From Ruminococcus flavefaciens (GTDB lineage Bacteria; Bacillota; Clostridia; Oscillospirales; Ruminococcaceae): 64,000 nt of DNA. The position numbers and the translations under genes are program-made. Location of the stretch: positions 1 through 64,000 of the forward strand of contig JAMPIL010000001.1 of assembly GCA_023662725.1 (NCBI GenBank), written 5' to 3'. The notes beneath the pieces are model-generated. The model saw only the letters and a program-made list of their open reading frames with translations. It made no database searches and was not told where the DNA came from. This document shows positions 18,105-34,965 of this stretch, piece by piece (within the stretch, counting starts at the first letter, position 1; each line of letters opens with the position of its first letter).

Positions 18105-21100
18105 TTATTTGTTAACGGCTCTCTTCTTTTTTACAATTATAATTACCACACCTGCAATAACGCCTGCTATAAATATACTACATAGGATTCTGAACCACAA
18201 ACAGTAAAACAAACCTACCTGAATGGATGAAATTTCTTGTACGGTATAAGTATTGCCAGCCTCATCAACAAGAACAAAGCTTAAATCATGCCAGCCCTTT
18301 TCCAAAGTGTAGGACAATGTATCTGTTTCATCTGAATAATCAAAGTAATCTGCTGAGATTGCTTTCCCATTGTCATATACGATACACTTTGATTTATCAA
18401 GTGATTCACTAATATTAGATAGAGTAATCGTCTTTGTTTTACTTGTATATGATTTCCAGTCCTTTAAATCGGAAGGAACAGTGCAAGTCGGCGCAAGTGC
18501 ATCAATACGAATCCATCCCAGTGTTATGTGTGATGTTTCTTTATTGTAAGTATTTTCTGCCCAAAGATAAAGGTCTTTATTTGTTCCCTCAGGATAATTG
18601 TCTGCAAAGTATTCTTTTGGCAAGGTATAGTTATACACACCCACTGCATACATACCTTCAGAATTTTCAGCGGTTATTCCGGTATCTTGGGATTTACCGT
18701 TTTCATCACGGAGTATAATGCTTGTTTTTGAATTTTCCTGTGCAAACACTGTAATATCCAAATCACTGAAGGCGTCAGGTCTCTTGCTTATCGGTGTATT
18801 CTCATCCTTTTGTAATGAATACCATCCTTTCGATTCTGCTTTATTACTATTAGAAATATAAGCAAGAACATCGGATTCCATCATCAAAACAGAAGTATTT
18901 CTGCAAAGAACACTTCGATTTCCCGCCTTATCTACTGCTGTAAGATCTACCGAATATACACCATCTTTTTTGAATTCAGGTAATGAATAAATTTTTTCTG
19001 AAATGTTTCCGCTATCAGTTTCAGGAATAATTGTGCCTATTTCCTTTCCATTTGAATATTCAGGAGTATAAACAGTCAGGTCATATTCAATATGATCAAA
19101 ATTTGTATCGGAAAATGTAACAGAAGGAATAAAATTTTCTTCTACACCTGTTTTTTCGTTATAGATTTCCAAATTTTTATATGATTTTTCCTCATCCTTT
19201 GCATAAACCCCGTTTCTCTCTGCAATAATCGGATTTGTAAAGTCAATTTCAAACACGACAGTTTCCTGAGCTATTGTAGAATTTGATGCCAAATCAACTG
19301 GAGTTACTCTAATAAGATATACACCGTCATCATTTTCTTCAAACGGAATTTCTAATGTATGCTCATCACCATTATCGCTCCATCCGGAAACTGTAGTTGA
19401 CTTTACACCTCTTATGTCGTGTTCACTGCCTGGTTCTAATCTGAATATCTCGGCATTTGCGTCCTTGGCTGAAAAATTATGTTCAATAATTGTGATTATT
19501 GCGGTTTTATTTATACTGTCGCATCCGAAGTAATGTTTTTCTTGTTCTGTCTCAAACTCATCGAAATTTGTTTTTATAATAGGAGATGTTTTATCTATAA
19601 CAAACATTGATTGTGTAAAGACTTCCGCAGTATTGCCTGCCATATCTGAAAAAGTAATGGAATAACTATAATCACCATCAGTATTGATCGTAAATGTTCC
19701 TATATGCACAGCAGCATCGTCTTCTCCTGTTGAAGCCCAATTACCAATAATCTGTTCACTTCCATTCAGCATAAATTTTACACCAGAAGCATCAAAATTT
19801 CTATCAGTAATTGATATAGTCACCGTCTGATCTGTATTGTAATACATCGAATTGTACGGTGTCTGGTTACTAAGTGCAGCAGTTATGGTAGGAGTTGTTG
19901 TATCAATACTGTATGTTTTTGAAACCTCACTGGAATTACCTGAACGATCCGTAAGTTTTATAAGAACAACATTACCATTTGAGTTGTCATCTACGGAAAG
20001 TGTAAACTGCATTGATGCAACTAGATTGCTTTCCATTTCTACAGTATCAATAGTTACTGCATTTGAATTACTCTCATACCTTCCATCATTTGCAACTATA
20101 ATTACACCTGATTCACCGTCATTTGCAATAGACCATTCAATAGTAGAAATACCAGAAAATGTATCCTTTACTGTAATAGTAAGGGGAATATTTCGATTGT
20201 ACAACGGCACATTTGCAGCATCTACTTTGTCAGTAGCAACTATTTCAGTAATATCAATCGATGATGTTTGATTATGGATTGCGTCATCTTCAATGATACT
20301 ACCATCTGCATTCACCAGACCTGAAGTATGTTCTACATTATCAACTGCTTCAGCGGCAACTGTTCCTTTAAATCCCATAGGAATTGTAAATACAGCATAT
20401 GTTCCAGTTTCATCTGTAATATACGCTTTTTCATCTGTGCTGTATAAAGTTTTGACAGCAGTTGCTCCATTAATATTAGAGAGATATAATGTCACTCTAT
20501 TGATACCAGACGCTATGCCAGGATCGTTCACATAAACCCTTATGGAAGTTTCTTCTTTGAAGTAGTACCCATATGTTGTCTTTACAACCTCAGAGCCATA
20601 GTCCTCCTGATCTCCGAATACAAACTTAGAAATAGCAGGCTTTTCTTTATCAATATGTACTTTTAATTCAGTACGAACACTGCTATTGCCAGCATTATCA
20701 TGAGCAATTGCGTTAATTATATAGTCGTTTGCATCAATTAACTTATATGTGTAGATGGCTTCATCCTGAAAACGATTTGCGTTAAATGTGACACCTTCAA
20801 AGTCAGTTTCTTTCTTTGATATTCCATCATTTTCTTGAATTTCAACATAATTCAAGCCGCTATTTGAATCACTTGCTGAAACCACATATTCAATGTCATC
20901 ACCATACCAAGTTTCACCACCAACAGTATACTCGATATAAGTAGAAGGTACAGTTACACTTACTGAAGGTATGTCTTTCTCAAGTACTAAGGTTACTCCA
21001 TCTGTTGTAATTTCATCTTCAAGTATAAGTTCACCAACGTTTAAAGATTCTGCTGTATCCTTGGTTGCGAAATAAAATGTGTTTGAATTTCCTATTTTAT

Positions 21101-23048
21101 CATATACAACAATATAAGGGACAGCTTCATTATCAATCGGAAGATCCTCAAATCTGTATAGGCCATTTTCTTCATCAATCGGCGTCGCACTATATTTGTG
21201 TAATTCGCCATCAGCCGTTGGTGCCCAATACAAAAATACCTTCTTTGGGTCAACACCAATACCAGAGTCGTTATCATGAACGTTAATATCTATGGATATA
21301 GTTTCCTTTCCGAAAATACCGAATGTCAAGAACTTAAGCATAGATTGATTTACTGTGTAATTAAAATTATCAATTAGTGGTGGCGTTGAATCTACCGTGA
21401 AATTGTAAGTATTAACATTGTAGTTGCCAGCTAGGTCAATAAGTTCAACTTTAACTACATAATCTTTGTTTTCTTTGTAATCATTAAGTTTCAACGAGTA
21501 TTCTGTTGATGGAATTATCACATTGTATTGAATGGTACTTGTTACTGTTTCTGTTTGTTCCTCACCATCTGTGTCGGTAACAACAGCGCCACTATGATCT
21601 GTTACAACTACTGTTTCAGTTATTGTTTCCGTAGCTGTTTCTTCGCACACAACTGATGTGACGCAAGCATCATCCACATAGACCTTGTACTCAGCGATAC
21701 CCACATCATCAGACATAGAAATTGCAATAGCGTTATCTTCAGTAATCTCACCAAAGAAGCTATCCCCTACGGGTGTAATGTCGGGTTTAAAAGAAATCTT
21801 ACAATCTTCGGCACTCTTAGGATCATAGAGAACTGTGCATTCTACATCATCGATTGCAAGCTTAATTTCATCACTATCATTTTGATCATCTGATGCAATT
21901 ACAGAAATGGCATTTGCCTCATTTTTCTTCATGCTATCATCAAAATGTGAAAGCTCAATATAATATGTTTTTTCAATAGAATTTGATGTATCGTTGCAAA
22001 TCCAATCTTCTGATGTGATAGATTTAACCTCACCATTTATATTAACAATAATTTCCGTTAAATCTTCTTCGTTGATCGTAACGCTGAGAAAATATTTGTC
22101 ATTTGCATAAATATGCCTAATCAGATTTTCTAGTGCTTCATTGCCAAAAGTAAGACACTCAAGAATGGTTGCTCCTTGCTGTGCTTCGCTTGTAATAGCT
22201 ACTTCAATAATCTGAGGAATGGTTGGATCATTTGTAACGTTCTCTATTTTTTGTTCGTTTACATTTCCAGCCATATCTTCAATGTATACTGTGATTGTAG
22301 CTTCTTCAAGCCAGTCAGCAATTCTGAATGAAAAGCCGACAATATTACCATAGACATCATATTTTATCTGATCTTGACTAAGAAGATTTGTATTCCAATC
22401 GTTAATCTTATAATAAATCTTATTTATACCTGAGATAGCATCCGAAATTTCATTCTCATTACTAATTACAAAATATTTTGTATTCCATTCCTCTTCAGTT
22501 TTGTTATCTAAGTTAAAAGGTTCTGGTTCTGATTTATCAAGATGATACTGATAAACTTCTGAAACCGATGCTCCGCATTTTCCATCTGGGTACACAGCCC
22601 AAAATACAATATAATAACTTCCTTCTAAGAGCTTGTCTACACCTTCCCAATTTTTTGCATCTTTAACATCAGGTTTAATTCTTTCTGTTTCAGTAGTTAT
22701 ATCATAAGTTTGATATAAGATTGTTGCACCTTCAGAAGCTGATATCTGCCAATTTTGAAGATCATCATACTTAATCCATTTATCTTGAATCGGAATGTTA
22801 ACATTAAGATTTGGAGGAGATGTATCCTTAGTTGTAGTTGTTGTCGTTTCCGTTGTTGTTTCAAGGCTTGTAGTAGTTGTTGTTTCCTCGCCCACCTCGT
22901 CATCAACTGTATTATTTGTATCAATTGGCATTTCAACATTCGTAGTTTCAGATTTATCTGCAATCGCTACAAATCCACTATTAAGCGAAATGCTCATAAA
23001 CATTACAATCGCTGAAATACCAGCAACGATTCTCTTACGTAGTTTCAT
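18105..23048 (-). CDS. Giant Ig-like repeat surface protein with C-terminal membrane anchor
   Basis: The protein has 1647 residues. The start at 23048 follows AGAGGAGC. A signal peptide (MKLRKRIVAGISAIVMFMSI) is followed by a Thr-rich linker (TTTTTSLETTTETTTTTTKD). At least ten bacterial Ig-like/FN3-like repeats come next, marked by recurring VTVxDNxSGI, YSITFSDMAGNTAEV and xDKTxPxI boundaries. The end has one transmembrane helix (CSIFIAGVIAGVVIIIV) and a basic tail, with no LPxTG. It is co-directional and last in the secretion block, so it may form the outward part of the apparatus or an adhesin. That role is inference; the architecture is plain. Confidence 0.85.
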   Translation of the reverse strand: MKLRKRIVAGISAIVMFMSISLNSGFVAIADKSETTNVEMPIDTNNTVDDEVGEETTTTTSLETTTETTTTTTKDTSPPNLNVNIPIQDKWIKYDDLQNWQISASEGATILYQTYDITTETERIKPDVKDAKNWEGVDKLLEGSYYIVFWAVYPDGKCGASVSEVYQYHLDKSEPEPFNLDNKTEEEWNTKYFVISNENEISDAISGINKIYYKINDWNTNLLSQDQIKYDVYGNIVGFSFRIADWLEEATITVYIEDMAGNVNEQKIENVTNDPTIPQIIEVAITSEAQQGATILECLTFGNEALENLIRHIYANDKYFLSVTINEEDLTEIIVNINGEVKSITSEDWICNDTSNSIEKTYYIELSHFDDSMKKNEANAISVIASDDQNDSDEIKLAIDDVECTVLYDPKSAEDCKISFKPDITPVGDSFFGEITEDNAIAISMSDDVGIAEYKVYVDDACVTSVVCEETATETITETVVVTDHSGAVVTDTDGEEQTETVTSTIQYNVIIPSTEYSLKLNDYKENKDYVVKVELIDLAGNYNVNTYNFTVDSTPPLIDNFNYTVNQSMLKFLTFGIFGKETISIDINVHDNDSGIGVDPKKVFLYWAPTADGELHKYSATPIDEENGLYRFEDLPIDNEAVPYIVVYDKIGNSNTFYFATKDTAESLNVGELILEDEITTDGVTLVLEKDIPSVSVTVPSTYIEYTVGGETWYGDDIEYVVSASDSNSGLNYVEIQENDGISKKETDFEGVTFNANRFQDEAIYTYKLIDANDYIINAIAHDNAGNSSVRTELKVHIDKEKPAISKFVFGDQEDYGSEVVKTTYGYYFKEETSIRVYVNDPGIASGINRVTLYLSNINGATAVKTLYSTDEKAYITDETGTYAVFTIPMGFKGTVAAEAVDNVEHTSGLVNADGSIIEDDAIHNQTSSIDITEIVATDKVDAANVPLYNRNIPLTITVKDTFSGISTIEWSIANDGESGVIIVANDGRYESNSNAVTIDTVEMESNLVASMQFTLSVDDNSNGNVVLIKLTDRSGNSSEVSKTYSIDTTTPTITAALSNQTPYNSMYYNTDQTVTISITDRNFDASGVKFMLNGSEQIIGNWASTGEDDAAVHIGTFTINTDGDYSYSITFSDMAGNTAEVFTQSMFVIDKTSPIIKTNFDEFETEQEKHYFGCDSINKTAIITIIEHNFSAKDANAEIFRLEPGSEHDIRGVKSTTVSGWSDNGDEHTLEIPFEENDDGVYLIRVTPVDLASNSTIAQETVVFEIDFTNPIIAERNGVYAKDEEKSYKNLEIYNEKTGVEENFIPSVTFSDTNFDHIEYDLTVYTPEYSNGKEIGTIIPETDSGNISEKIYSLPEFKKDGVYSVDLTAVDKAGNRSVLCRNTSVLMMESDVLAYISNSNKAESKGWYSLQKDENTPISKRPDAFSDLDITVFAQENSKTSIILRDENGKSQDTGITAENSEGMYAVGVYNYTLPKEYFADNYPEGTNKDLYLWAENTYNKETSHITLGWIRIDALAPTCTVPSDLKDWKSYTSKTKTITLSNISESLDKSKCIVYDNGKAISADYFDYSDETDTLSYTLEKGWHDLSFVLVDEAGNTYTVQEISSIQVGLFYCLWFRILCSIFIAGVIAGVVIIIVKKKRAVNK

Positions 23049-23163
23049 TTTCTTGCTCCTCTGCATTTTCTTTTAGATTTTTCCTCCAGAAACTTATTGA
23101 AGATATAACAAAACACACTATGCTGCATAATAAAGCATATTTGTATTTTTATACGCTATAATA

Positions 23164-23526
23164 TCACTTCTTCTCGTCACTCTGTTTAACCAACATACTA
23201 TGTAAAGCTTTATAAGAAGTTCCATTGGTATATTCTTTTTTGAAAAGGTTGTTTCCTTTTCTCTTATATGGAAAAAACGCCATAGCTCCAATAACAAAAA
23301 CAATAACTGCAACAACAGCAGCTATAATGATATAAATCCGCCACGTTCGATAATCAATATCCAGTCTGCCATAAATTCCTGTTACCGCCAGTACCCCCAA
23401 TATCAACAGTATTACGCAAAGAGACCCCACCAAACCCACTAATCCACCATAAACTATGTATCCTGCTATGGGATGCTTTTGAAAACGCTTATTCAGATAA
23501 ACTTTGATTTTTTTTACACTCTCCAT
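23164..23526 (-). CDS. Two-TM membrane protein of the secretion locus
   Basis: The 120-residue protein starts MESVKKIKVYLNKRF at 23526, set by GAGGTG seven bases upstream. Two strong hydrophobic helices (GYIVYGGLVGLVGSLCVILL and the segment after YRTWRIYII) are joined by a short loop, with a basic cytoplasmic tail (PYKRKGNNLFKKEY). No known family. It lies directly below the kinase gene (10 bases) and above the Ig-like gene, so it may be a small membrane component in place of EssA. That assignment is inference. Confidence 0.65.
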   Translation of the reverse strand: MESVKKIKVYLNKRFQKHPIAGYIVYGGLVGLVGSLCVILLILGVLAVTGIYGRLDIDYRTWRIYIIIAAVVAVIVFVIGAMAFFPYKRKGNNLFKKEYTNGTSYKALHSMLVKQSDEKK

Positions 23527-23536
23527 AATATTCACC

Positions 23537-25468
23537 TCAGTCGATCTTTTCCAGGCGATCTAAAAATTCTGCAATTTCTGAACGACTTATACCTTTCGTA
23601 TCGGATATAGCATTTATTGCTATATCGCCCTTGTTGTTAAGCGCAATAGCAAGGTGTCCCACAGAATATCTATATACGGGATTATTTTCGTTTTCCTCTA
23701 GCAGAGTATATGCATCGCTGTAGTTGTAATTGTTAATGTTCTCTACACTATGGATAGCAAGAGCTAATTCATATGCAGTGCTCGTTTCTGACAATTCCAG
23801 CTCACTTATTGCTGTTGAAATAGAGGAAAGTTCAGCCGCATTTGCCTTTTCCATTATTTTATCAACATACACTATTTTTTCACTGTCATCATCAAACTGC
23901 TCCAGAAGTGACACCATAAGAGATGCTTCCATTGTACTAATGACATCGTCCTTAGACAGATAATTAAAACATTCATTACATACGACTTTTTTCCGTCCAT
24001 CATCAGCAAGTTCCATTCTTTCAAGTGATATTTCGGATATCTTGCCAAACTGCGTTGCCTGATATGTTATGGTATTTTCATTTTGGCTGTTTATTCCTTC
24101 CAAAAGCTCCTCCCAGTCACTTGTAGCGATCTGATAACCGATTACCTTATAGACAAATGAGAATAATAACAGCGTTATGATGCAGCCGATGCATGCACCA
24201 AAAATAGTTGCAGCATTTCGCACCTGCTTGTTCTCTCCTTTTTTTACAGAAGGAATACTATCTCGGGCATCGTCAAGATCATCTTTCAGATCTTTATAAT
24301 AATGGTAATAATCATCACTTTCAAGATATCCTGTTTTACGCTGCCTTGTACATTTGCTTATAATCTTTTGCAGTGATAAATGATATCGTCCACCTAAAGG
24401 TCCAGTACATTCAAGAGATAAATCTCTATTAAAATACGCTTCGTCACTCAGAAGATTTGCTTCATAGAAATTATGCGGAGATTCAGCAAACAGCTCATTA
24501 TTTGTCATAAGCTCCACAATATTCATACATTCCCAAAATGTTGCTCCAAATGAAAATATGTCGCTTTCTATTGATATTTTTCCAATTTCATATCCTTCTT
24601 GTGAGAATGGAAACTTCGACTCATTGTTAGTAGCCGCATAACATTCAGGTGCAGCGTAGCCTATTGTTCCATGTGAGAAGAGAGAATTAATATCTTCTGC
24701 TTCATTATAGTTTACACTTTGAAGATTATGATATACGAATGTTGTATCATCCGGTAAAAATATGGAACGTCCAAAGTCTATCAAAACCAGTTCTTCACTC
24801 TGACGTGTCACCATGATATTTTCAGGTTTAATGTCAAGATGAAGAACCTTTTTCTTTGAAGTTGTGCTGATAAACATCAATATTCCGCATAGGCTTTGCA
24901 TGAATCGAAGTAGTTTTTCCTGATACCGAAAAAAAGTTTTTTCATCCTTATATTTTTCTAATACCTCTTGTTTTTCGATATCTGAAAAATCATGAAAGTT
25001 TACCCACCTATTATCTTTATATTTTTCAAGTCCCCAAAATTCTCTTCTGCAATATTGTTCCAGTGACCAACCATCAATAAACTCTTCAATTACACAAAAG
25101 CAAGGCAATATATCTTCTAAACCATTGGGATTGCTGCTACGAATAAACACTTTGGTTCCCGGGATTTCCAATTCAAAGTTTTCACCGATGTCTTCCACAA
25201 CATCATATATTCTGGCAACGCTTCTGCATTCTTGAAGTTCTTCAAAGATTTTAAGTTCTTGATTCTTAAATCTGTCGAGTCTTTCACTTGATTTTGGCTT
25301 AAACTTTAATACGCAAGAGAAAGATAAATCAGACTTGCCGTTTTCATCTATAGAAACTTTTCTGCCTTTAAAAACAAAACTTTCAGTTCCAGAAGCAATA
25401 AAACCATCAGGAAAATCCTTTTTATCAATTTCATAAAGAAATTTTGTCCCTTGTATTTGAGTACTCAT
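23537..25468 (-). CDS. Membrane Ser/Thr kinase in place of EssB
   Basis: The protein has 643 residues. A cytoplasmic protein-kinase domain (about 20-390) keeps the catalytic set: the VLKFK lysine (about 55), HLDIKPEN (210-217), DFG (231-233) and the YAAPE activation-segment end. One transmembrane helix is at 418-445 and a helical repeat domain fills about 450-643. Canonical T7b systems have EssB/YukC, a pseudokinase with the same order (kinase fold, one TM, extracytoplasmic domain); here the residues needed for catalysis are present. The start overlaps the stop of the 58-residue gene above (ATGA). It probably belongs to the membrane complex and could phosphorylate components such as the basic repeat protein. 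Confidence 0.82.
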   Translation of the reverse strand: MSTQIQGTKFLYEIDKKDFPDGFIASGTESFVFKGRKVSIDENGKSDLSFSCVLKFKPKSSERLDRFKNQELKIFEELQECRSVARIYDVVEDIGENFELEIPGTKVFIRSSNPNGLEDILPCFCVIEEFIDGWSLEQYCRREFWGLEKYKDNRWVNFHDFSDIEKQEVLEKYKDEKTFFRYQEKLLRFMQSLCGILMFISTTSKKKVLHLDIKPENIMVTRQSEELVLIDFGRSIFLPDDTTFVYHNLQSVNYNEAEDINSLFSHGTIGYAAPECYAATNNESKFPFSQEGYEIGKISIESDIFSFGATFWECMNIVELMTNNELFAESPHNFYEANLLSDEAYFNRDLSLECTGPLGGRYHLSLQKIISKCTRQRKTGYLESDDYYHYYKDLKDDLDDARDSIPSVKKGENKQVRNAATIFGACIGCIITLLLFSFVYKVIGYQIATSDWEELLEGINSQNENTITYQATQFGKISEISLERMELADDGRKKVVCNECFNYLSKDDVISTMEASLMVSLLEQFDDDSEKIVYVDKIMEKANAAELSSISTAISELELSETSTAYELALAIHSVENINNYNYSDAYTLLEENENNPVYRYSVGHLAIALNNKGDIAINAISDTKGISRSEIAEFLDRLEKID

Positions 25469-25641
25469 TTCGCATTTATTCCTTTTTCATCTAATTCTGG
25501 AAGTTTCAGCAAGTCAAAAATTGTGCCGTCACTCCCCTCATTCAATATATTCAGCTTGACTCGACTATCTTTTGCCGACTGTTCTTCTTTGATTTTCACA
25601 TTAGCGAGATTCATTGACTTTTCTTCACTTTCTTTGCTCAA
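25465..25641 (-). CDS. Hidden 58-residue gene between WXG100 and kinase
   Basis: A TTG start (25639-25641) overlaps the TGA of the WXG100 gene as TTGA, and the stop overlaps the kinase ATG as ATGA, so translation is coupled on both sides. The product (M)SKESEEKSMNLANVKIKEE ... FDLLKLPELDEKGINAK is charged with one hydrophobic stretch and no known family. A shorter start at the internal ATG would give 49 residues. The tight overlaps with both neighbours argue that it is a real part of the operon. Function unknown; a chaperone or adaptor would fit the size. Confidence 0.65.
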   Translation of the reverse strand: MSKESEEKSMNLANVKIKEEQSAKDSRVKLNILNEGSDGTIFDLLKLPELDEKGINAK

Positions 25642-25970: not shown

Positions 25971-25988
25971 AACATTTTCCTCCAATTA

Positions 25989-27815
25989 TTACTCTGTCTT
26001 AATAAATTTCATCTTAACAAGTCTATCTGCTTCAATGTCATAAAAATATCCGTCACCTTTTTCACAACGAGCATACTCTTCTTTCAACCCCTTTACATCC
26101 ATACTTCCAAAAACAGATTTTTGACCTCTTTCAGATGCAAATTCTGCTATATTATCCAAGAGAAAAACAGAATTAAGTGTATTATTAAAGAAATTATTCA
26201 TTTCCTGATCTGTAATCTTTTGAATATCTGTGAAGATGAATATCATATCTTCTTCTTCAGCAATAGCTGCAAGCTTTGGAAGTATATTATTAATAAATTG
26301 CTTTTCTCCGTTTGCACTCAAATACAACATTTTGCTTTGAAGAATAAACACAGTCGGCTTAATTGGCTTTCTATTTTCATCATAAGAAGGCATTAACCTC
26401 GCATTTGCCTCTCCATATATATACGTTGCAATAGGTGAATGAAGCTGATTATTTGACAAACCATTCCATGTCAAATCCATATAGTTATCATTTATGAAAT
26501 GATAAAACTGCTGATATGGAGAAACTGTTTTACTAATGCTTCCTTGAGTCTTCTTAGAGTCAATAACATCCATAAAACCATTTGACATATCAAATGAAAG
26601 GGATTCTGTTTCATTTGGCGGCAATTTCATATTCTTTTTTGACTCTATAAACTTTCTGCAATCCAGACCAAGAGATTCGCATTTTTTATAGAATTCTTCC
26701 AACTGTTTTCTTCCGTCATCAAAAAAGATAAATCTTGCATAAGATTTCTTTTTGAATAATTCATTAAGAATCAGACGAAGAAGGTTGCTCTTTCCGTATT
26801 CCTTTTTTCCATATATACCAATCACTCTTGCTTCTGAAAAGTCTACTGTCACAGGATAAAAGTCAATATAATCCAATCCCACTGATACAAGACAAGGATT
26901 CTCTTTTGGCTTTTCTTCAGAAGTTGTTGGCGTTTGCTTTAATCTGTCATATTCACTGAATGTCAAATCACCTGAAAAAGTTAAGTACTTTTTCACGCAC
27001 CTGGTATAAACATTTGAATTTTCATCAAATTTAAACTTATCTTTTAAGGTTTGAATATAATTCGTAGTATTATCAAGCGGGTCAGCTATATAACACTGTA
27101 ATTCATAGGGTGCATTCATTCTGAAGGTACCTTCAATACCATCAGGTTTTATTGTTACATTCGCAAATCCTCTACCAGCAATTGCGCCTATTTCTGTCAC
27201 CTTTGCATTAAAAATATCCATATATTTATCTGATGGCATTTCAAGTGCAATTTTCTGACCGAAACTGTTCAAATAAGATGAAAGTCCTTTAGTATCCGAG
27301 GCGGTGAACACTACTGTAATACCTTTTGATAAACCATCACGACATATCTTAGAAAATTTCTCCTGATATGCTAAATATCTTGGTTCATCCTGAAAAGCAT
27401 TGAGATTATCGATGATAAATGTTGTGTGAAGCATTTTCTTTTCACCATTGAATGATGAAAAGCTTATACCATCAAGCTCTTTTGTGTTATTTTTTATAAT
27501 TTCTTCCAGTATCTTAAATGCTCTTTTCACATATTCCTCATTAGAGTTATCAAAACAAGCTGAAACCAAAGGAAAATCTTTGTAAGAGGCTAATGCACCA
27601 CCAAAGTCAAGAATGAAGATTTGTTCATCATCTACATCATTTGTCATATGTAAAGTTTGAATCAGTAACTTAAGGAAGTTTGTTTTTCCACTCATCGAAG
27701 CGCCAAACAGTGCTATATTTTTATCAAGTAAATCAACTTGAAATAATGGCTGCTTCTGCACAATAGGAATATCATACTGTCCTAAGGTGCATATCATTGT
27801 TTTTTTCTCTTCCAA
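25989..27815 (-). CDS. EssC/EccCb-type ATPase, domains 2 and 3
   Basis: The protein has 608 residues. Two FtsK-like nucleotide domains are visible: Walker A GASMSGKT (38-45) with EQIFILDFGG, and Walker A GKKEYGKS (335-342) with ARFIFFDDG. It corresponds to the C-terminal half of EssC, and as a separate gene resembles mycobacterial EccCb. A TTG start with GGAGG about seven bases upstream is preferred; an ATG six codons in is the alternative. It follows the first ATPase gene by one base. It should recognise Esx substrates and drive secretion with the partner below. Confidence 0.85.
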   Translation of the reverse strand: MEEKKTMICTLGQYDIPIVQKQPLFQVDLLDKNIALFGASMSGKTNFLKLLIQTLHMTNDVDDEQIFILDFGGALASYKDFPLVSACFDNSNEEYVKRAFKILEEIIKNNTKELDGISFSSFNGEKKMLHTTFIIDNLNAFQDEPRYLAYQEKFSKICRDGLSKGITVVFTASDTKGLSSYLNSFGQKIALEMPSDKYMDIFNAKVTEIGAIAGRGFANVTIKPDGIEGTFRMNAPYELQCYIADPLDNTTNYIQTLKDKFKFDENSNVYTRCVKKYLTFSGDLTFSEYDRLKQTPTTSEEKPKENPCLVSVGLDYIDFYPVTVDFSEARVIGIYGKKEYGKSNLLRLILNELFKKKSYARFIFFDDGRKQLEEFYKKCESLGLDCRKFIESKKNMKLPPNETESLSFDMSNGFMDVIDSKKTQGSISKTVSPYQQFYHFINDNYMDLTWNGLSNNQLHSPIATYIYGEANARLMPSYDENRKPIKPTVFILQSKMLYLSANGEKQFINNILPKLAAIAEEEDMIFIFTDIQKITDQEMNNFFNNTLNSVFLLDNIAEFASERGQKSVFGSMDVKGLKEEYARCEKGDGYFYDIEADRLVKMKFIKTE

Positions 27816-27816
27816 T

Positions 27817-30800
27817 TCACATCCTCCATTCTGTAGTATTTTCGAGTTTTGTTTTCAATGGTGGCATAAATATCTTTTCTGGCGTTGGTCTACCTTCATT
27901 TATGGCTATGATCGTATCAACAACAAATTTCAATTGAGTAGCATTTGGATCAACGTTCTTCTGAGCTTGCTTTTGTGCTTCATTATCCTTCTGCGAACGA
28001 TAAAACTTGTCGTTGAACTTTCCGCTGTTAGGAACATATGTAATATTAACAGGGCTTTCAATGCTTAAGTTTTGATTTGCACCAGTATAAGCTGATTGAA
28101 AATATTCAAATCTTGATCCCGTACCAACAAGCAGATATGCACGTCCGTTTAGAGGCATGGTTGGTGCAGCTGCAACCGGACTGTCGATCATTTCCTTAGA
28201 AGCTTGTTTTGTAGCTACCTTCAAGCATATTCTGGCTTTTGAGTTAACACGTATGTCATCCGTAATAGCACCTTCAATATTCTGAGAAACAAGAATAATA
28301 TGAAAACCAAGTGTTCTTCCTACGCGAGCAATTGTGGTGATCTCAGCAATAAAATCAACATCATTACTCTCATTAGAAAATCTCTTTAATTCTGTAAACT
28401 CATCCACAACAAGAACAAGATGCGAAAGATGTTTAATCCTTTCTATCCCTTTAGCCTTTAATACTTCTATCTGCTTGTCATTTAGTTTTCCAATTTTTTC
28501 TAAAACAACTTGTATGCTTTCAGAATATTCAGATTCCTCTATTGCAATCTGCCTGGATTTCAAGTTTTTGTAAATAATATGTGCCTGTTGTAATGACAAA
28601 TTTTCTTCCTTATTTATAAGGTTATCAATTTCAACCATAATTCTTCTTGCACGAATATATGCATCTGCTGTATCAACACCAAATTCCTGAAGCAACAGCT
28701 TTCTCTTTTTTATTTCAGCGTTTAATGTCTCAAGAAATCTCTTCAACATATAAGCTGAAGAAATTCCATCGCTTTCACCTGCTGTATCGGTTACGACGCC
28801 TACACAATGAGGCAAATCTCCTAATCGATCTGAGAAACCTCCGCCTTTCATATCCACAAGCATTAGATTCAAGTCCATTGGAGAAAATTTCATACAAAGT
28901 CCTATTAAATATGTAATGATTGTTTCAGATTTACCCGAACCTGTTGTTCCTGCAACAAGCATATGCGGACCATCAGCTTTTTCATATAAATCAAGATGCA
29001 TATTACCATGTTCATTTGCACCAATATTGACACGAAGATTTCTGGTTACATCATATTCTTCTTTTGAGCTTGACCAAAATTTCAGTATTCTATTTGCTAT
29101 ATTTGTGGTAGATAATGGATTAGAAGAATTGTTTCTTCCAATTTTTGTATCTGCACTTGAAATATTGTGAAGTTGAAAAAGAGTTACCATACTTGGAACT
29201 TGTCCATTTTCGGCAATACGAGTATAGTAAATGGCACTCAGTCTTTTATAAGCCAGTTCATATTGCTCTTTATATTCACCAGCTTTAAAGATAAAGTCAT
29301 TCCAAAAATTAGGATATTTCTTTGTTTCCGTAACAGTTGCAAGAATATTTTCACGTGTCATTACACGGTATCTTGGAACAACATAACCATATCCGGTATT
29401 GTTATTGCCGATATTCAAATAAATGATATCACCACAATAACGTGGAAGTTTATCTTTATCATCCCGGCAAAATAAAAATGTCAATCCTAACTTATTTTGA
29501 TAATCCTCCCCTTCCTTTGGAGCTTCAGGAAGATATTTTGAAAATCCCGTAGACTTTATCCCATAATCACCAAAAATAACACAAACAATTTGTGTGAGTT
29601 TTTCAGGAACAGAATCATTTTCTTCATCAGACTGTTTCTCTTTTGCCCTTTGATTCATAATGTTCAGAAGCTGTCCATACACTTCACCGGCGCTTTCTTG
29701 ATTGAAAATGAATTGAGAAGTATTTTCAAGCAGTTCATTACAATGAGGAAGAAATTTATATGCTTTCACTCTTTCCTCCTGTTCCTCAACACTTAATTCA
29801 TCCTCAAAGAAGAACACAAATTGAATATCCTCCGGAGAATGATAATAAGCAAGATCTAATATCGTGTGTTTAATAAAGTCGTGTGCATACAGATTGTCAT
29901 CAGAAATAATACCTACAGCACCTGCATTTCTGATATCAAGCATATATGGCGCTTTTACTCCTGCGCTTCCCCAAGTTTTTCCATCTAAAAATCGAAAATA
30001 TTCTGTTGAGAAATGATATGATAATTCAGAAAGCAAGAACATATCCTCAGACATTTTTTCACTTTTTATAAGCTCTTCTTTTTTTAATGCATCTTTTCTT
30101 TTGATTTTATCCTTTGGAATATCGATATATATGCCTGAAATTCGTTTTTCCTTACCATTCTGAAAGTTTTCATAACATAAACGATAATATACATCAGAAA
30201 ATATTTCATCCTTTTTGTCATATTTTATATTGAAAAGCGGCTTCACATTCTCAGACACGCCAAGTGCAATACGCATAAAATCATTATCATTTTGTGAACG
30301 TGCAAAAATGGCTGAATCAAGTCTTGCAAGATTTTTAAAAAGTTCGGACACATCTGGATACAACTGCCGAAGATATGTTACATCAGCTTGCTGCCATTTG
30401 CCTATATTATCTATGACACGCTTTATATAATTTTCATAGTTTTCCTTCCATTCATGTTTCTTTTTGCGGTTTGTTTTTCCTTGTTTAAAGTAGTTGTATG
30501 TTGTCGTAACCAGTGTCATTACACCTGTTGCAGCTGTCATCATCCACATGGTTCCGCCTAATCCCGAAGAACTTGACATAAACGCACGTACACCAATCAT
30601 ACCGCCTGTGGAAATAACTGTGGGTATCAAAATATCAGCCAGTGAACGTTCTTCTTTTTGCGGTACTTCGCCTGGTGGCAATATTTCGATATCAGATGAT
30701 TCAACAGCCTCTAAAGTACGGCTGCTTATATTATATTCCAGAGAATTGTTATCCGATTTTAATATATAGCTGCTAGGCACTTCTTCAAATAAAACCGTTT

Positions 30801-31155
30801 CTTTGAAGCTGGAATCCATTGCTATCATCAACACACTTGAAGTTACAAATCCTAACTCAGTTAATGTGACTTTGGCATTCTTCAATTCTTTTTCACAATT
30901 AATAACCTTAAATTCACCTTTTCGAGTAAAGTTAACCGCTATTTGATTTCTCTTCTTGATATAATTCTTATACAAAAGAAAATGGCTTATGAAATGATTA
31001 TGCAGTCCATAATAAAGTCCTTCTAAAAATGCTTTCAGCGTTATATCATCTTTCACAAGAAAAGCAAGACTGTCTTTGGTGCCAGCTAATTCTCCATATA
31101 TATCGTCATTTGGAAAATTAAATTGTACTGAAATCATTATTTCATTATTTTTCAT
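27817..31155 (-). CDS. EssC/EccCa-type membrane ATPase, domain 1
   Basis: The protein has 1112 residues. The first 115 have a pattern compatible with a ubiquitin-like YukD fold. Two transmembrane helices lie at about 175-222 (ADILIPTVISTGGMIGV and MWMMTAATGVMTLV). An FtsK/SpoIIIE ATPase domain follows, with AGTTGSGKS (735-743) and Walker B LVLVVDEF (913-920). Between the Walker motifs is an unusually long charged insert (about 815-905). The protein ends where EssC would continue into its second and third ATPase domains, which are the next gene. It is the membrane motor of the type VII-like system. Confidence 0.87.
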   Translation of the reverse strand: MKNNEIMISVQFNFPNDDIYGELAGTKDSLAFLVKDDITLKAFLEGLYYGLHNHFISHFLLYKNYIKKRNQIAVNFTRKGEFKVINCEKELKNAKVTLTELGFVTSSVLMIAMDSSFKETVLFEEVPSSYILKSDNNSLEYNISSRTLEAVESSDIEILPPGEVPQKEERSLADILIPTVISTGGMIGVRAFMSSSSGLGGTMWMMTAATGVMTLVTTTYNYFKQGKTNRKKKHEWKENYENYIKRVIDNIGKWQQADVTYLRQLYPDVSELFKNLARLDSAIFARSQNDNDFMRIALGVSENVKPLFNIKYDKKDEIFSDVYYRLCYENFQNGKEKRISGIYIDIPKDKIKRKDALKKEELIKSEKMSEDMFLLSELSYHFSTEYFRFLDGKTWGSAGVKAPYMLDIRNAGAVGIISDDNLYAHDFIKHTILDLAYYHSPEDIQFVFFFEDELSVEEQEERVKAYKFLPHCNELLENTSQFIFNQESAGEVYGQLLNIMNQRAKEKQSDEENDSVPEKLTQIVCVIFGDYGIKSTGFSKYLPEAPKEGEDYQNKLGLTFLFCRDDKDKLPRYCGDIIYLNIGNNNTGYGYVVPRYRVMTRENILATVTETKKYPNFWNDFIFKAGEYKEQYELAYKRLSAIYYTRIAENGQVPSMVTLFQLHNISSADTKIGRNNSSNPLSTTNIANRILKFWSSSKEEYDVTRNLRVNIGANEHGNMHLDLYEKADGPHMLVAGTTGSGKSETIITYLIGLCMKFSPMDLNLMLVDMKGGGFSDRLGDLPHCVGVVTDTAGESDGISSAYMLKRFLETLNAEIKKRKLLLQEFGVDTADAYIRARRIMVEIDNLINKEENLSLQQAHIIYKNLKSRQIAIEESEYSESIQVVLEKIGKLNDKQIEVLKAKGIERIKHLSHLVLVVDEFTELKRFSNESNDVDFIAEITTIARVGRTLGFHIILVSQNIEGAITDDIRVNSKARICLKVATKQASKEMIDSPVAAAPTMPLNGRAYLLVGTGSRFEYFQSAYTGANQNLSIESPVNITYVPNSGKFNDKFYRSQKDNEAQKQAQKNVDPNATQLKFVVDTIIAINEGRPTPEKIFMPPLKTKLENTTEWRM

Positions 31156-31167: not shown

Positions 31168-32391
31168 TTATAATTCCCTATGTACTATATTCAAAATGTT
31201 TTTTACATCAATTTCAGAACAATTCGGTGTATTTATATTTACCATTGGAATTTTATCCTTTTCAATCGTTACTTTCTTAATAGGTTTGGCTAAAATACAT
31301 GGTTCTTTAATCTTCTGTGGCGCTATTGCAGTTACGTTTCTACATGACAGAGGTGTAAACTTATTCACAGACGGTATCGAAACAGCTTTCAATGGTGAAA
31401 GAGCAACCTTATATTTCGGCTTCATGTAAGATTTTATACTTGATATAGACAACATATGCTTCTCAAATGGCTGCACTTTTCCTAACGAAGTAGAGCTAAT
31501 CTGCCGATGTATGGCTGAAAAATCACAATTAACCGCAGGTATCTGCACTTGAGGCATATTTTGAATTTTATGTTTTTGTTTTTCAAATGTAATTTCAGGG
31601 ATACTAACATTAATCTTTAGAATATCTTTTACTTCACATTTAGGAGCACTGAAAACTTTATTTGAAACTTCGGCTTTGGAAAGAGATGGCATATCTTTAA
31701 TTTTGACACTACCAGCAAAATTGAACTTGACAGATTTGGGAAGGGGGATCAAAATTTGAGGAGCATCAGTGAATTTTTTTTCATATTCAAAATTCATAGG
31801 CAAAATCTCTGGAATATTTTTCTTTGGAATGCCCGTTATTTTTCTTGGCATCATTTCGGTGAATTTGCATTGCGGAACAGCAATTGTTTTATTACAGTTC
31901 GATATGCCATGAATCAAATGCTTTGTCTTTTTGGAAAATGAAACTGAAGGGATAATTAAACTCGGCTTTGATAGAGAAACTATTCGCTTCTGCATATTAT
32001 GATACGGTTTTAACGAAGGAAGAGTGACCTTAGTCATAGGTTTTATTCTTACACATACAGCCGAACTTTCAGACATTCTTTTTCTAATTTTCACAGCACT
32101 TAAAGATCTATTTTCTAACTGTTGTAAAAATAAATTTCTATTTGTTTCTGATTTCGGCAGTTTTATCTTAACAATTCCAATCGACTGATATTTAGGAATA
32201 TCCAACTTTGGAACCGGTTTTATTCTTTTTAATTTCGGTTTTGTATATTGAATATTTGCATTTTCAATCTGTTCAAGTTTCTCAACAAACGCAACTCTCT
32301 CACGGTATATTTTTAATTGTTTTTCGTACTGCTTTCTCTCCGATTCATTCAGCAAAGAAATTTCGTCTTCACTTAATTCTCTAAATGCCAT
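31168..32391 (-). CDS. Lysine/proline-rich repeat protein, unknown
   Basis: The 407-residue protein starts MAFRELSEDEISLLNESE after GGAGGTGG. After a short charged helix (about 1-45) the rest is very basic and poor in acidic residues, with loose repeats every 20-25 residues of the form K-x-x-x-I-P-x-[VI]-x-[FC]-x-K, for example LIIPSVSFSKK, IPEILPMNFEYEKK and VQIPAVNCDFS. No transmembrane helix and no known domain. It lies between the Esx genes and the motor gene, 12 bases from the latter. It could be an unstructured scaffold, tether or kinase substrate; that is speculation. Confidence 0.75.
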   Translation of the reverse strand: MAFRELSEDEISLLNESERKQYEKQLKIYRERVAFVEKLEQIENANIQYTKPKLKRIKPVPKLDIPKYQSIGIVKIKLPKSETNRNLFLQQLENRSLSAVKIRKRMSESSAVCVRIKPMTKVTLPSLKPYHNMQKRIVSLSKPSLIIPSVSFSKKTKHLIHGISNCNKTIAVPQCKFTEMMPRKITGIPKKNIPEILPMNFEYEKKFTDAPQILIPLPKSVKFNFAGSVKIKDMPSLSKAEVSNKVFSAPKCEVKDILKINVSIPEITFEKQKHKIQNMPQVQIPAVNCDFSAIHRQISSTSLGKVQPFEKHMLSISSIKSYMKPKYKVALSPLKAVSIPSVNKFTPLSCRNVTAIAPQKIKEPCILAKPIKKVTIEKDKIPMVNINTPNCSEIDVKNILNIVHREL

Positions 32392-32452: not shown

Positions 32453-32491
32453 ACAATCATAAATTATTTCTCCGTTCCGGATTCAATAATT

Positions 32492-32791
32492 TTAGTTACC
32501 TCTGATACTTGCTGCTATTTGTGCATCTGTATCATCAAAATTAGTTGCATTCGCTTCCAAAAGAGACGCAAGTCCCCTAACTGCACCAGGTAAGTCTGCT
32601 GTTACAAAACCTTCAACATTCGTATTAAAGAACTCTTCCAAGGCATCTTTTGAATCGCCTTCCATTTCTTCAATTGCTGCCTTGAATGCAGTTACAAAGG
32701 TAGTTCCCGCATCTTCATACTTTGTGCCAAAATCATTCAGATTTTTAACGCTTGCATCCATAGATGCTTTTACAACTCTACAACCTGCCAT
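32492..32791 (-). CDS. Esx-like protein 3
   Basis: A 99-residue all-helical protein (MAGCRVVKASMDASVKNLNDFG ... EEMEGDSKDALEEFF ... NFDDTDAQIAASIRGN). The size, two-helix pattern and M-E-G-D turn in place of W-x-G place it with the Esx/WXG100 group. It is the third of three consecutive small helical genes and is followed by the attenuating hairpin. Likely a secreted substrate or a heterodimer partner of its neighbours. Confidence 0.7.
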   Translation of the reverse strand: MAGCRVVKASMDASVKNLNDFGTKYEDAGTTFVTAFKAAIEEMEGDSKDALEEFFNTNVEGFVTADLPGAVRGLASLLEANATNFDDTDAQIAASIRGN

Positions 32792-32808
32792 GATAAAATA
32801 CCTCCTTA

Positions 32809-33147
32809 TTATTGCTGATTACTTGATGTATTCGCTGTACCCAGTTGTTCGTCAACACCCTCTGTATCCGGTATTGCGGATTTTATGCTGTTACAAATCT
32901 GTTCCAACGTATCCAATATTTTTGTAAGGCTTTCGCCTGTTGCCTTGCTAATATTATTAGTGTAAAAGTTTTCAAACCCTTTTGATGCAGAGCCTGTAAA
33001 GTCACTCGATATAAGATTAGTTACCTCAGTTCCTACACTCGTATGCAGAGTTCCTGTTGTAGTACGATATTCAGTAATCGCCTTAATAGCTGCATCCATC
33101 ATTTCCGGTGTAATATTTACCGTTCCGGTTTTTCCCATACCTGCCAT
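32809..33147 (-). CDS. Esx-like protein 2
   Basis: The 112-residue protein has an N-terminal helix beginning VNITPEMMDAAIKAITEYR, a turn with DFTGSASKGFENFY (F-x-G in place of W-x-G), and a second helix (SLTKILDTLEQICNSIKSAI) with a flexible acidic tail. The family fit is good despite the missing Trp. GGAGG precedes the start. It sits 17 bases above Esx-like 3 and may form a pair with it. Confidence 0.75.
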   Translation of the reverse strand: MAGMGKTGTVNITPEMMDAAIKAITEYRTTTGTLHTSVGTEVTNLISSDFTGSASKGFENFYTNNISKATGESLTKILDTLEQICNSIKSAIPDTEGVDEQLGTANTSSNQQ

Positions 33148-33170
33148 AATTGATTCCTCCTAAAATTATA

Positions 33171-33479
33171 TTATCCGTTCAGTTCTTCATACTGTACGAA
33201 TATATCCTTGTAATATCCTGAACCAATAATTGTGTTCAGCGTATTTGAAATATGCTGAATTACTACACTCATATCTTCAATTGGCTGTAATAATACATCC
33301 TTTGCAGTAACCTGAATTTCCTCTCCAGCTGTAGTATCCAATGCACTTGATACATTTTCATACATTTTTTCAAGCTTGGCTTTCAAATTAGCAGCGTCTT
33401 GTTTCAAAATAGCCATTTCTTGTGAAGCTGCCGTAAATGCAGTATCATCCAGTACAATATCATGAAACAGAAATGCCAT
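33171..33479 (-). CDS. Esx-like protein 1
   Basis: The 102-residue helical protein starts MAFLFHDIVLDDTAFTAASQEM and continues LKAKLEKMYENVSSAL, VIQHISNTLNTIIGSG and YYKDIFVQYEELNG. The size and two-helix pattern match Esx or TIGR04197-type T7 substrates or partners, but no W-x-G is present. It begins one base after the TPR gene's stop. It is probably a secreted partner or a chaperone for the Esx-like proteins next to it. Confidence 0.65.
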   Translation of the reverse strand: MAFLFHDIVLDDTAFTAASQEMAILKQDAANLKAKLEKMYENVSSALDTTAGEEIQVTAKDVLLQPIEDMSVVIQHISNTLNTIIGSGYYKDIFVQYEELNG

Positions 33480-33480
33480 A

Positions 33481-34965
33481 TTATGTACCTCCGTTCCTTG
33501 CCTTGTTTATTTCTTCCAGAAGAGATTCTTGCAATTCCTTCTTCAAGTAACCACACTTTTCTTCTGCTTCTTCATACTGCTTGATATCAATAAGACATCT
33601 TACTCGCAGCATCATAGCATTAAGATCTGTCGGATCCTTCAAAATTGCATTACGTAACTTTTTCTGAACTTCTGTATATTTATCCTGCCATCCGGCAAGA
33701 TTCATATCTTTCATTGCCTTTGCTTCTGTATACCAACCAAGTTCAACAAGGTAGTCTTGTGTACTCTTCTGCAATTCAAGAGCATAGTACATAACTTTCC
33801 TGAAATCTTCTTTCAAAGTATATGCACCGATGTATATGCGATTGATTCTGTCTTTGTTTTCCGGAGAAACATCAATTTTCTCACTTTCAGAAAGCCTATA
33901 TTCATCACTTCGTGCATTCTCATTTTCAACCGGCGAAAGATATGTTCCATTTTTTCGCATAGCTTCCAATTGTTCTGTGCTTAACTGCTCATAACGATAC
34001 AAGTTTGCATTCATCTCATTTAAGATTGAATTCGAATCTGCTTGTTTCGGGTTATACTCATAATAAAAAACTCCGTTATTATATGAGAAAATAGGATTTT
34101 CTGCACCTTTCAGGCATATAAGTACACCGTCAGCATCTTCAATCTGTAAATACAAATCAGCTGCTTTCAGGTAACATTCTACCACTTCCTGTAATGCAGG
34201 CTCCTCTGTTTTCATATAATGCTTTATATACGTTAATGCTCTCTGAAAACGATTTAAATCATGATCTTTTTCGTATGCAGTCAGCTCAAAATTAACCATA
34301 TCTTCGCAGAGTGCAAAAGGAAAATTCATGAGATTCTTTCTTGCATAAACAAGTTCCTTAAATGCATCTTCCAAACGATTCGCCTGTTTCAACATGATAT
34401 ATGCAACCTGATATCCTGCATAATCAGACGGTGCAAAGAGCTTCATTTGATTTGCAACATTCAGTCCGTTTGTAATTTCATCTTTTATACCGTAAATTGC
34501 AGCCTTACGTTTCATGACATCCATATCAGCCGGTACAAGCAATTCGGACTTTTTCAAATTGATCAGTGCATCATCTAATCTTCCAAGCTGCTGATTGACT
34601 ATACCAAGAATATGATACATCTGTGCCGCTGCGTCTTCATTTAAGCCAAGTTCATCTGCTTTAGCGAAGCTCTGCATAGTGTCGGCAATTTTATTGATAC
34701 TTGCCTGCGCATATCCGAGATTGAAATAACGATTTCCGTTATCCGAGTCGCAATTTACCGCCTGTTGGTAGTATTCTATCGCATCTTCATAACGACTAAG
34801 AGACATACATACATTAGCGGCACACTGATAAGCATCTGCACATTTCGGATCAAGTTTAATTGCAGATTTTGCAAGGCTGAACGCTTCTTGCATCTTTCCA
34901 TTTAAAAAAGCTACTTGTGCGTTAGATATGAGCTCGGTTAATTGTTCTTTGCTGTTTGTTAACAT
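33481..34965 (-). CDS. TPR-repeat protein of the secretion locus
   Basis: The protein has 494 residues. The first 200 contain at least four clear TPR units (AFLNGKMQEAFSLAKSAIKL, ADAYQCAANVCMSLSRYEDA, NRYFNLGYAQASINKI and YHILGIVNQQLGRLDDALIN), and a further TPR-like pair closes the C-terminus (MLRVRCLIDIKQYEEAEEKC). No signal peptide or TM, so it is cytoplasmic. It is directly upstream of three Esx-like genes and has no canonical T7 counterpart. A chaperone or assembly role is inferred. Confidence 0.8.
   Translation of the reverse strand: MLTNSKEQLTELISNAQVAFLNGKMQEAFSLAKSAIKLDPKCADAYQCAANVCMSLSRYEDAIEYYQQAVNCDSDNGNRYFNLGYAQASINKIADTMQSFAKADELGLNEDAAAQMYHILGIVNQQLGRLDDALINLKKSELLVPADMDVMKRKAAIYGIKDEITNGLNVANQMKLFAPSDYAGYQVAYIMLKQANRLEDAFKELVYARKNLMNFPFALCEDMVNFELTAYEKDHDLNRFQRALTYIKHYMKTEEPALQEVVECYLKAADLYLQIEDADGVLICLKGAENPIFSYNNGVFYYEYNPKQADSNSILNEMNANLYRYEQLSTEQLEAMRKNGTYLSPVENENARSDEYRLSESEKIDVSPENKDRINRIYIGAYTLKEDFRKVMYYALELQKSTQDYLVELGWYTEAKAMKDMNLAGWQDKYTEVQKKLRNAILKDPTDLNAMMLRVRCLIDIKQYEEAEEKCGYLKKELQESLLEEINKARNGGT

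What the first reader, a model, noticed from the sequence alone, without database searches (positions are those of the whole stretch)
18105..34965. Divergent type VII-like secretion locus with an active-looking kinase and no canonical EssA, EssB or EsaA
The core has Esx proteins, a split EssC motor, a TPR protein, a basic repeat protein, a hidden small gene, a two-TM protein, a membrane kinase and a giant Ig-like surface protein. The kinase has the fold order of EssB (kinase, one TM, outer domain) but keeps Lys, HLD and DFG residues that EssB pseudokinases lack. No EsaA, EssA or free YukD gene is visible. This may be a distinct T7 subtype with built-in phosphorylation control.
Basis: partly seen in the sequence, partly recalled or inferred. 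Interest (0 to 1): 0.87.

Follow-up and report, generated by a model that had tools for sequence, protein, structure and literature searches.

The report
New subtype of type VII secretion
A gut Ruminococcus and its relatives carry an apparently undescribed version of the bacterial type VII protein-export machine, whose motor is made as two chains and seems to carry a ubiquitin-like helper fused to its front end, which may show where that poorly understood helper acts.

Summary
The locus is real: eleven same-strand genes encode a type VII secretion machine with a two-chain EssC motor, Esx/WXG100 proteins, a TPR protein, a disordered protein, a membrane kinase, a two-TM protein and a 1653-aa Ig-like protein. 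The cassette recurs in Ruminococcus, Ruminiclostridium and others; split motors form one clade (100/100). EssB and free YukD were not found in the genome, EsaA only at E 0.117; EssA was not tested. New: the split motor lacks detectable FHA domains and has a conserved ~115-residue N-terminal domain that best matches the ubiquitin-like EsaB/YukD subunit (HHalign P 0.0005; 0 of 200 shuffles and 0 of 39 decoy families score higher), while a YukD gene lies in 26 of 28 non-split reference loci and was found in no split-motor locus. The kinase shares EssB's topology, not detectable sequence. Phosphorylation control is unproven. Verdict: new T7SS variant.

The parts
33481..34965 (-). TPR protein, 494 aa, first gene of the cassette
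   Evidence: TPR_19 E 2.9e-12; in 23 of 24 loci with at least 5 kb upstream
33171..33479 (-). Esx-like small protein E1, 102 aa
   Evidence: No Pfam family; homologue in 23 of 24 loci with at least 5 kb upstream
32809..33147 (-). Esx-like WXG100-type protein E2, 112 aa
   Evidence: WXG100 E 5.4e-6, 27.0 bits, cut-off 27.3
32492..32791 (-). Esx-like protein E3, 99 aa
   Evidence: WXG100 E 0.028 only; conserved place
31168..32391 (-). Low-complexity protein with conserved N-terminal stretch; ORF opens at 32460, relatives suggest the start at 32391
   Evidence: No family; conserved place, charge not conserved
27817..31155 (-). EssC-a: N-terminal domain, two weakly hydrophobic segments, ATPase 1
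   Evidence: TIGR03928 E 1e-119; P-loop at residue 736, Walker B at 914
30802..31155 (-). EssC-a residues 1-118: probable ubiquitin-like EsaB/YukD domain
   Evidence: HHalign to YukD P 0.0034 local, 0.00049 global; relatives' profile P 0.0005; no Pfam match
25989..27815 (-). EssC-b: ATPases 2 and 3, starts 1 base after EssC-a ends
   Evidence: TIGR03928 E 1.7e-36; P-loops at residues 38 and 336
25638..25985 (-). WXG100 protein, 115 aa
   Evidence: TIGR03930 E 1.3e-6, below cut-off
23537..25468 (-). Membrane kinase, 643 aa: kinase domain, TM 421-439, outer domain
   Evidence: Pkinase E 7e-11; Lys in 16 of 16, HLD and DFG in 15 of 16 aligned relatives
23164..23535 (-). Two-TM protein, 123 aa
   Evidence: Hydrophobic segments 33-51 and 69-87
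18105..23066 (-). Large Ig-like surface protein, 1653 aa
   Evidence: Big_13 E 7.3e-11, Big_3_2 E 5.9e-8; hydrophobic segments 17-35 and 1627-1645
16147..18039 (-). Candidate substrate: pretoxin-HINT protein with Ntox15 domain
   Evidence: PT-HINT E 3.2e-38, Ntox15 E 4.1e-31
15591..16124 (-). Candidate immunity protein
   Evidence: T6SS_Tdi1_C E 1.4e-22, GAD-like E 3.3e-12
38522..40231 (-). Second candidate substrate: pretoxin-HINT protein
   Evidence: PT-HINT E 1.4e-36
34978..35658 (-). PoNi-type immunity protein beside the TPR gene
   Evidence: PoNi_N E 6.1e-24, PoNi_C E 6.5e-23

Best explanation
The locus encodes an apparently undescribed subtype of type VII secretion. Shown by sequence: an FtsK/EssC motor made as two chains (anchor with ATPase 1; ATPases 2-3), Esx/WXG100-type proteins and a conserved accessory set, with the motors forming one clade. 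Inferred: the motor exports the Esx proteins and the neighbouring pretoxin-HINT toxins against competing bacteria. The EsaB function is supplied in cis by a ubiquitin-like domain at the motor's N-terminus, where other motors carry FHA domains that dock EssB. A transmembrane kinase with an outer, sensor-like domain sits where EssB sits in T7SSb and phosphorylates motor or cassette proteins; the two-TM protein and the Ig-like protein form the outer part, as proposed for TsdI.
For: Split motors: 20 of 20 on one side of a 100/100 branch, in all 200 bootstrap trees examined. Gene set kept: TPR and E1 in 23 of 24, EssC-b in 35 of 35, a kinase in 27 of 28 loci in range (one contig pair, L010/L046, is counted twice in the last two). 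In G417, G487 and G540 kinase, two-TM and Ig genes lie together about 18-65 kb from EssC-a. N-terminal domain against YukD: P 0.0005 end to end, 0 of 200 column shuffles and 0 of 39 decoy families score higher, FHA regions 11.0 against 20.4. A YukD homologue in 26 of 28 non-split reference loci and in 0 of 3 split ones; none in the other split-motor loci and none in the own genome. The first eight residues of the domain, as a scan pattern, also hit the starts of free yukD genes beside EssC in L044 and L047. FHA domain found in EssC of L106, L121, L044 and L096, none in the window or L029 motor.
Against: No Pfam or PDB match for the domain. A 25-member YukD profile gives only P 0.02, probability 2%; the best probability is 31%. 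The best decoy score is 22.9 against 24.5, though its P is 0.024. Pairwise scores without the first 12 residues are not significant (z 1.6). In single-sequence searches the best YukD hit fell in the first 130 residues in 9 of 22 motors. The nearest outgroups have only weak FHA matches (L103 Yop-YscD_cpl 1.9e-4, L104 FHA 0.012, both below cut-off), so 'replaced FHA' is less certain than 'no FHA'. No structure, no function test. L039 has no kinase in 9.9 kb downstream and L027's is a pseudokinase.
Confidence: 0.55

Rival explanations
1. It is an ordinary member of a published subtype (T7SSd, T7SSe or T7SSj) with a split motor gene and some gene losses.
For: Kinase, small membrane protein and Ig-like protein match TsdD, TsdH and TsdI by description; TsdI of Olsenella uli has 1654 aa, this one 1653 (PMC11217815).
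Against: Split motors form their own clade, away from loci with DUF6382-FHA and PP2C genes such as L121 and L106. No detectable FHA on the motor, no phosphatase or FHA gene in the window cassette. Named reference motors could not be added.
Confidence: 0.2
2. The motor's N-terminal domain is not YukD-like: it is a new fold or a strongly degenerate FHA domain, and EsaB has simply been lost, as reported for T7SSd.
For: No family match; weak pairwise signal. T7SSd lacks any TsxB (PMC11217815).
Against: End-to-end profile match P 0.0005, better than shuffles and decoys; FHA regions of EssC score like background (P 0.58).
Confidence: 0.25
3. The kinase, two-TM and Ig genes are a separate envelope-sensing module that only travels near this T7SS.
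For: In G417, G487 and G540 the module lies about 18-65 kb from the motor; in L042 kinase and two-TM genes lie on the other side of the motor and no Ig gene was seen; the second group has other kinases and no two-TM or Ig match.
Against: A kinase lies in reach of the motor in 27 of 28 loci, and comparable kinases and Ig proteins are proposed core parts of T7SSd, e and j (PMC11217815).
Confidence: 0.2

Closest known systems
T7SSd and T7SSe (Garrett, Higginson and Palmer 2024, PMC11217815)
   Same: Membrane kinase with one TM, small membrane protein, Ig-like protein of about 1650 aa with signal and C-terminal TM, EssC-type motor, WXG100 proteins
   Different: Published motors are one chain with FHA domains; T7SSe has free TsxB, PPM phosphatase and DUF6382-FHA protein, all absent from this cassette; no TPR/E1-E3/disordered-protein row is described
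T7SSb (EssC/EssB/EsaA/EssA/EsaB)
   Same: Motor kinship (TIGR03928), Esx/WXG100 proteins, topology of the kinase like EssB
   Different: No EssB or free EsaB found, EsaA only at E 0.117, EssA not tested; motor split and without detectable FHA
T7SSj (PMC11217815)
   Same: Kinase and Ig-like protein
   Different: TsjD has a TPR outer domain; T7SSj has TsjB, TsjF, TsjJ and FHA on the motor
ESX-1 split motor EccCa1/EccCb1 (PMC2763215, passages)
   Same: Motor encoded by two genes that act as one unit
   Different: Different T7SS class; here a single-chain form also occurs (L012, 1728 aa)
Unnamed outgroup locus L103 (genome G241)
   Same: TPR (E 1.3e-51), E1 (8.9e-12), Esx-like proteins and a kinase beside EssC
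   Different: One-chain EssC with a 230-residue extension, a free YukD gene, and a vWA-FHA protein

Membership tests
Type VII secretion system (any) | EccC/EssC-type membrane ATPase | tested here: met
   EssC-a and EssC-b match TIGR03928 in complementary parts, each below the one-chain cut-off
Type VII secretion system (any) | WXG100-family protein encoded with the motor | tested here: met
   25638-25985 and 32809-33147, weak model scores just under cut-offs, literal W-K-G in the first
Type VII secretion system (any) | Secretion of Esx proteins by the motor | not testable with these tools
   needs an experiment
T7SSb | EssB/YukC | tested here: not met
   PF10140 and TIGR03926, own genome, no match
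T7SSb | EsaA | tested here: not met
   TIGR03929 only a 38-position hit, E 0.117, 12.5 bits
T7SSb | EssA | not tested
   no search made
T7SSb | Free EsaB/YukD gene | tested here: not met
   PF08817, own genome, E up to 10, no match
T7SSd / T7SSe | Membrane kinase TsxD | tested here: met
   Kinase with one TM; matches kinases of other T7 loci at HHalign P 3.4e-25, named TsdD/TseD not compared
T7SSd / T7SSe | Ig-like TsxI with signal peptide and C-terminal TM | tested here: met
   1653 aa, Ig-like domains, two terminal hydrophobic segments; sequence kinship to TsdI not tested
T7SSd / T7SSe | FHA domains on the motor | tested here: not met
   Pfam at E 0.1 finds none in EssC-a; found in L106, L121, L044, L096
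T7SSe | PPM phosphatase TseF and DUF6382-FHA TseJ at the locus | tested here: not met
   No such domain in the eleven cassette proteins or the ten neighbours scanned; own-genome FHA and PP2C matches lie elsewhere
T7SSe | TsxC phylogenetic position | tested here: inconclusive
   Split clade is separate from loci with T7SSe/f/j marker genes, but named TseC was not available
EssB family (kinase) | Sequence match to EssB/YukC | tested here: not met
   No match to PF10140 or TIGR03926; HHalign P 0.024 over 32 columns
EssB family (kinase) | Lost catalytic residues | tested here: not met
   Lys in 16 of 16, HLD and DFG in 15 of 16
EssB family (kinase) | EssB fold of kinase and outer domain | not tested
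   structure prediction not accepted
YukD/EsaB (motor N-terminal domain) | Match to the Pfam YukD model | tested here: not met
   No YukD match in 32 members at E up to 5
YukD/EsaB (motor N-terminal domain) | Profile-profile kinship over the whole domain | tested here: inconclusive
   P 0.0005, probability 31%, above 39 decoys and 200 shuffles; P 0.02 with another YukD set
YukD/EsaB (motor N-terminal domain) | Ubiquitin-like fold | not tested
   structure prediction not accepted

The most novel reading that the evidence does not exclude
A lineage of T7SS gave up the FHA docking platform of its motor and carries the ubiquitin-like EsaB subunit covalently at the motor's N-terminus, working with a catalytic kinase in place of the EssB pseudokinase. 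The fusion would show that EsaB acts directly on the motor, and the change from pseudokinase docking to a true kinase would make motor assembly or activity phosphorylation-gated.
Probability: 0.45. Interest if true: 0.8.

Novelty: new variant of a known kind. Interest (0 to 1): 0.6.

Why it matters
EsaB is indispensable for T7 secretion in S. aureus RN6390, yet its role is called unclear (PMC5845737, abstract and discussion read), and YukD showed no direct contact with the motor in two-hybrid tests in B. subtilis (PMC9600267, passages read). A motor that carries EsaB as its own first domain would say where EsaB works and gives a one-to-one construct to test it. It would also show that the FHA platform, needed for EssB binding in S. 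aureus (PMC9436818, passages read), can be done without. The cassette occurs in Ruminococcus flavefaciens, Ruminiclostridium hungatei and Acetivibrio straminisolvens; my searches of the held open-access library found no T7SS description for R. flavefaciens or for such a subtype.

Tried and rejected
Structure prediction of the N-terminal domain (alignment A2) and of the kinase (A3): the tool accepted no jobs, so no fold search was possible.

Pfam and PDB sequence searches for the N-terminal domain gave nothing usable. Hits to UMP-CMP kinases (E 0.14, with A5 0.023) and to the ubiquitin-like end of a NEDD8 E1 enzyme (E 0.51) cover parts only and are not used as proof. A Chou-Fasman estimate was too coarse to count.

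Search of 391 Clostridia for a free-standing copy of the domain: four fused copies (own genome, G417, G487, G540); the fifth match (G333, E 0.0025) lies antisense to a longer reading frame and is taken as chance.

'Kinase is EssB' was rejected on profiles. 'Basic' as a defining feature of the repeat protein was rejected. 'Split motor is a frameshift artefact' was rejected: the split recurs with gaps between -25 and +6 bases (67 in L043), and L012 has a one-chain form, 1728 aa. EssC-a of L028 and the kinase genes of L019 and G417 are broken into separate frames and were left so; only L019's break was looked at in DNA.

Rows dropped or doubled: L001-L006, L008 and L009 (own genome, or parts of L010) were left out of the gene maps. 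Near-copies of EssC-a were left out of the trees by a k-mer rule, and L105, L112 and L113 by hand. For the careful tree nine of 54 rows were dropped (L111, L118, L033, L034, L125, L012, L016, L020, L126), partly for long branches, partly to shorten the run. L010/L046 and L007/L021 are the same contigs and both are counted. The kinase profile was widened by iteration and covers both kinase kinds.
Full report
What is there. On the minus strand from 34965 to 18105 lie eleven genes in one direction, with gaps of 1 to 169 bases: TPR protein, three Esx-like proteins, a low-complexity protein, EssC-a, EssC-b, a WXG100 protein, a membrane kinase, a two-TM protein and a 1653-aa Ig-like protein. EssC-a and EssC-b cover complementary parts of the EssC model; EssC-a has one P-loop with a Walker B motif, EssC-b two P-loops. 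The contig has 1.45 Mb. GC is 0.31-0.36 from 8 to 44 kb, 0.40-0.46 in the first 8 kb and 0.41-0.45 from 44 to 56 kb, then 0.33-0.36 again. Pretoxin-HINT genes, some short, and immunity genes (PoNi, SUKH, GAD-like/Tdi1) stand on both sides.

How widespread. With EssC-a as query 3 of 197 genomes of the family matched at E 1e-60, the own one included. A pattern scan of the named genome collection gave 38 loci; L044, L047 and L048 hold other ATPases, so 35 hold this motor, one of them (L028) broken into pieces. Counts over 38 rows, that is the window, 35 named and two unnamed loci, with two contigs counted twice: TPR and E1 in 23 of 24 rows with at least 5 kb upstream, EssC-b in 35 of 35 with 2 kb downstream, a kinase in 27 of 28 with 6 kb downstream (missing in L039). 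Two arrangements exist. In the window's group, of 17 rows in range the kinase is in 17, the two-TM protein in 16, the Ig protein in 15. In the second group (11 rows in range with L039) the motor is followed, where scanned (L032), by two PP2C phosphatases, an FHA protein, a kinase and a PASTA protein with a kinase-like domain; across the group the kinase has HRDISPDN, and in the PASTA proteins that motif was not found. In three Clostridia of other families (G417, G487, G540) the motor cassette stands without the module, but kinase, two-TM and Ig genes sit together about 18-65 kb from EssC-a.

Motor phylogeny. In a careful tree of 45 motors the 20 split ones form one side of a branch with 100/100 support, in all 200 bootstrap trees examined (quick tree of 54 rows, same result). 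Nearest outside are L103 and L104, then EssC of T7SSb type. L103 has a one-chain EssC whose model match begins at residue 230, a free YukD, and homologues of TPR, E1, Esx and kinase. Loci with DUF6382-FHA genes, which PMC11217815 gives for T7SSe, f and j (L121, L106), lie elsewhere in the tree. The named reference motors could not be added.

The N-terminal domain. In EssC-a the EssC model begins near residue 140-150. FHA domains were found in that place in EssC of L106, L121, L044 and L096; L103 and L104 have weak FHA-type matches below cut-off; the window and L029 motors have none. The stretch before the model is conserved in 32 relatives (13 invariant columns). Against YukD proteins from reference loci: P 0.005 over 42 columns (A2); trimmed, P 0.0034 local and 0.00049 global; with the window's group led by R. 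flavefaciens, P 0.0005, probability 31%, end to end (A5). Controls: 0 of 100 and 0 of 200 column-shuffled YukD profiles reached the score; none of 39 families built from the same loci did, the best scoring 22.9 against 24.5 and the lowest P being 0.011; EssC FHA regions scored 11.0 against 20.4. A YukD homologue was found in 26 of 28 non-split reference loci and in 0 of 3 split ones; in the other split-motor loci the same model found only weak hits, among them the EssC-a N-termini of L023, L025 and L031. The eight-residue start pattern of the domain also hit the start of yukD beside EssC in L044 and L047. Against: no Pfam or PDB match; P 0.02 with a 25-member YukD set; pairwise scores beyond the first 12 residues not significant; best single-sequence YukD hit in the first 130 residues in only 9 of 22. 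I put a ubiquitin-like fold at about 0.75.

The kinase. The catalytic Lys is kept in 16 of 16 aligned relatives, HLD and DFG in 15 of 16; L027 has YKNIKADN and NPLN and is a pseudokinase by sequence. Profiles match other kinases of T7 loci (P 3.4e-25) but hardly YukC (P 0.024), and the outer domains match none of three sets tested. By topology it sits where EssB sits; by the tests made it is not an EssB. In T7SSb the FHA part of the motor binds EssB: FHA2 is needed for EssB association in S. aureus (PMC9436818, passages), and YukB's FHA region binds YukC's pseudokinase domain (PMC9600267, passages). Neither partner was detected here, so kinase and motor must meet in another way if they do. The cassette has no phosphatase, and the genome's only FHA match lies beside RodA- and PBP-like genes (named by eye); five PP2C matches, four over cut-off, lie elsewhere. 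Phosphorylation control is plausible and unshown.

What is known. PMC11217815 (read from abstract to discussion; supplements not readable here) describes T7SSc-j, predicted membrane kinases in c, d, e and j, and TsxI in d, e and j. Its main text has no hit for Ruminococc, split or TPR, and one for tetratricopeptide, about TsjD. Library searches for later subtypes or for T7SS in R. flavefaciens gave nothing further. Splitting of the motor gene is known in ESX-1 (PMC2763215, passages).

Verdict. As a kinase story it is largely anticipated; as a motor story it looks new: a separate subtype with a split motor, no detectable FHA domains, and probably EsaB fused to the motor.

Noticed in passing
window 41175-44062: AgrB-like protein (E 2.3e-33), LytTR response regulator and GHKL sensor kinase stand right beside the toxin array, a possible quorum-sensing neighbour.
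   Followed up: partly
window 14622-15362, 35674-36210, 36737-37402: Short genes carry partial pretoxin-HINT domains with other C-terminal parts, next to immunity genes, like spare toxin ends.
   Followed up: partly
window 58241-59584 and 57356-58132: A 447-aa protein with a weak FtsK_SpoIIIE match (20.7 bits, cut-off 24) lies beside a helical protein with an HNH-like end (by eye).
   Followed up: partly
L027:5619-7547: The kinase relative has lost HLD and DFG and, by eye, carries a CAP/SCP-like C-terminal part: a kinase of this family turned pseudokinase.
   Followed up: partly
L140:3428-6457: In G966 (the genome of L019) the two-TM protein and the Ig-like protein are in one reading frame, by fusion or by sequence error.
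   Followed up: no
L096 and L114 (genome G540): One genome carries two T7SS loci, one with a one-chain FHA motor and one with the split motor.
   Followed up: partly
L032:19418-21655 and counterparts: The second group pairs a kinase with a PASTA protein whose kinase-like domain lacks the HRD-type motif searched for, perhaps a kinase-pseudokinase pair.
   Followed up: no
window 7919-9934: A RES-domain protein and a serine recombinase stand at the edge of the low-GC stretch, which hints at a mobile origin.
   Followed up: no
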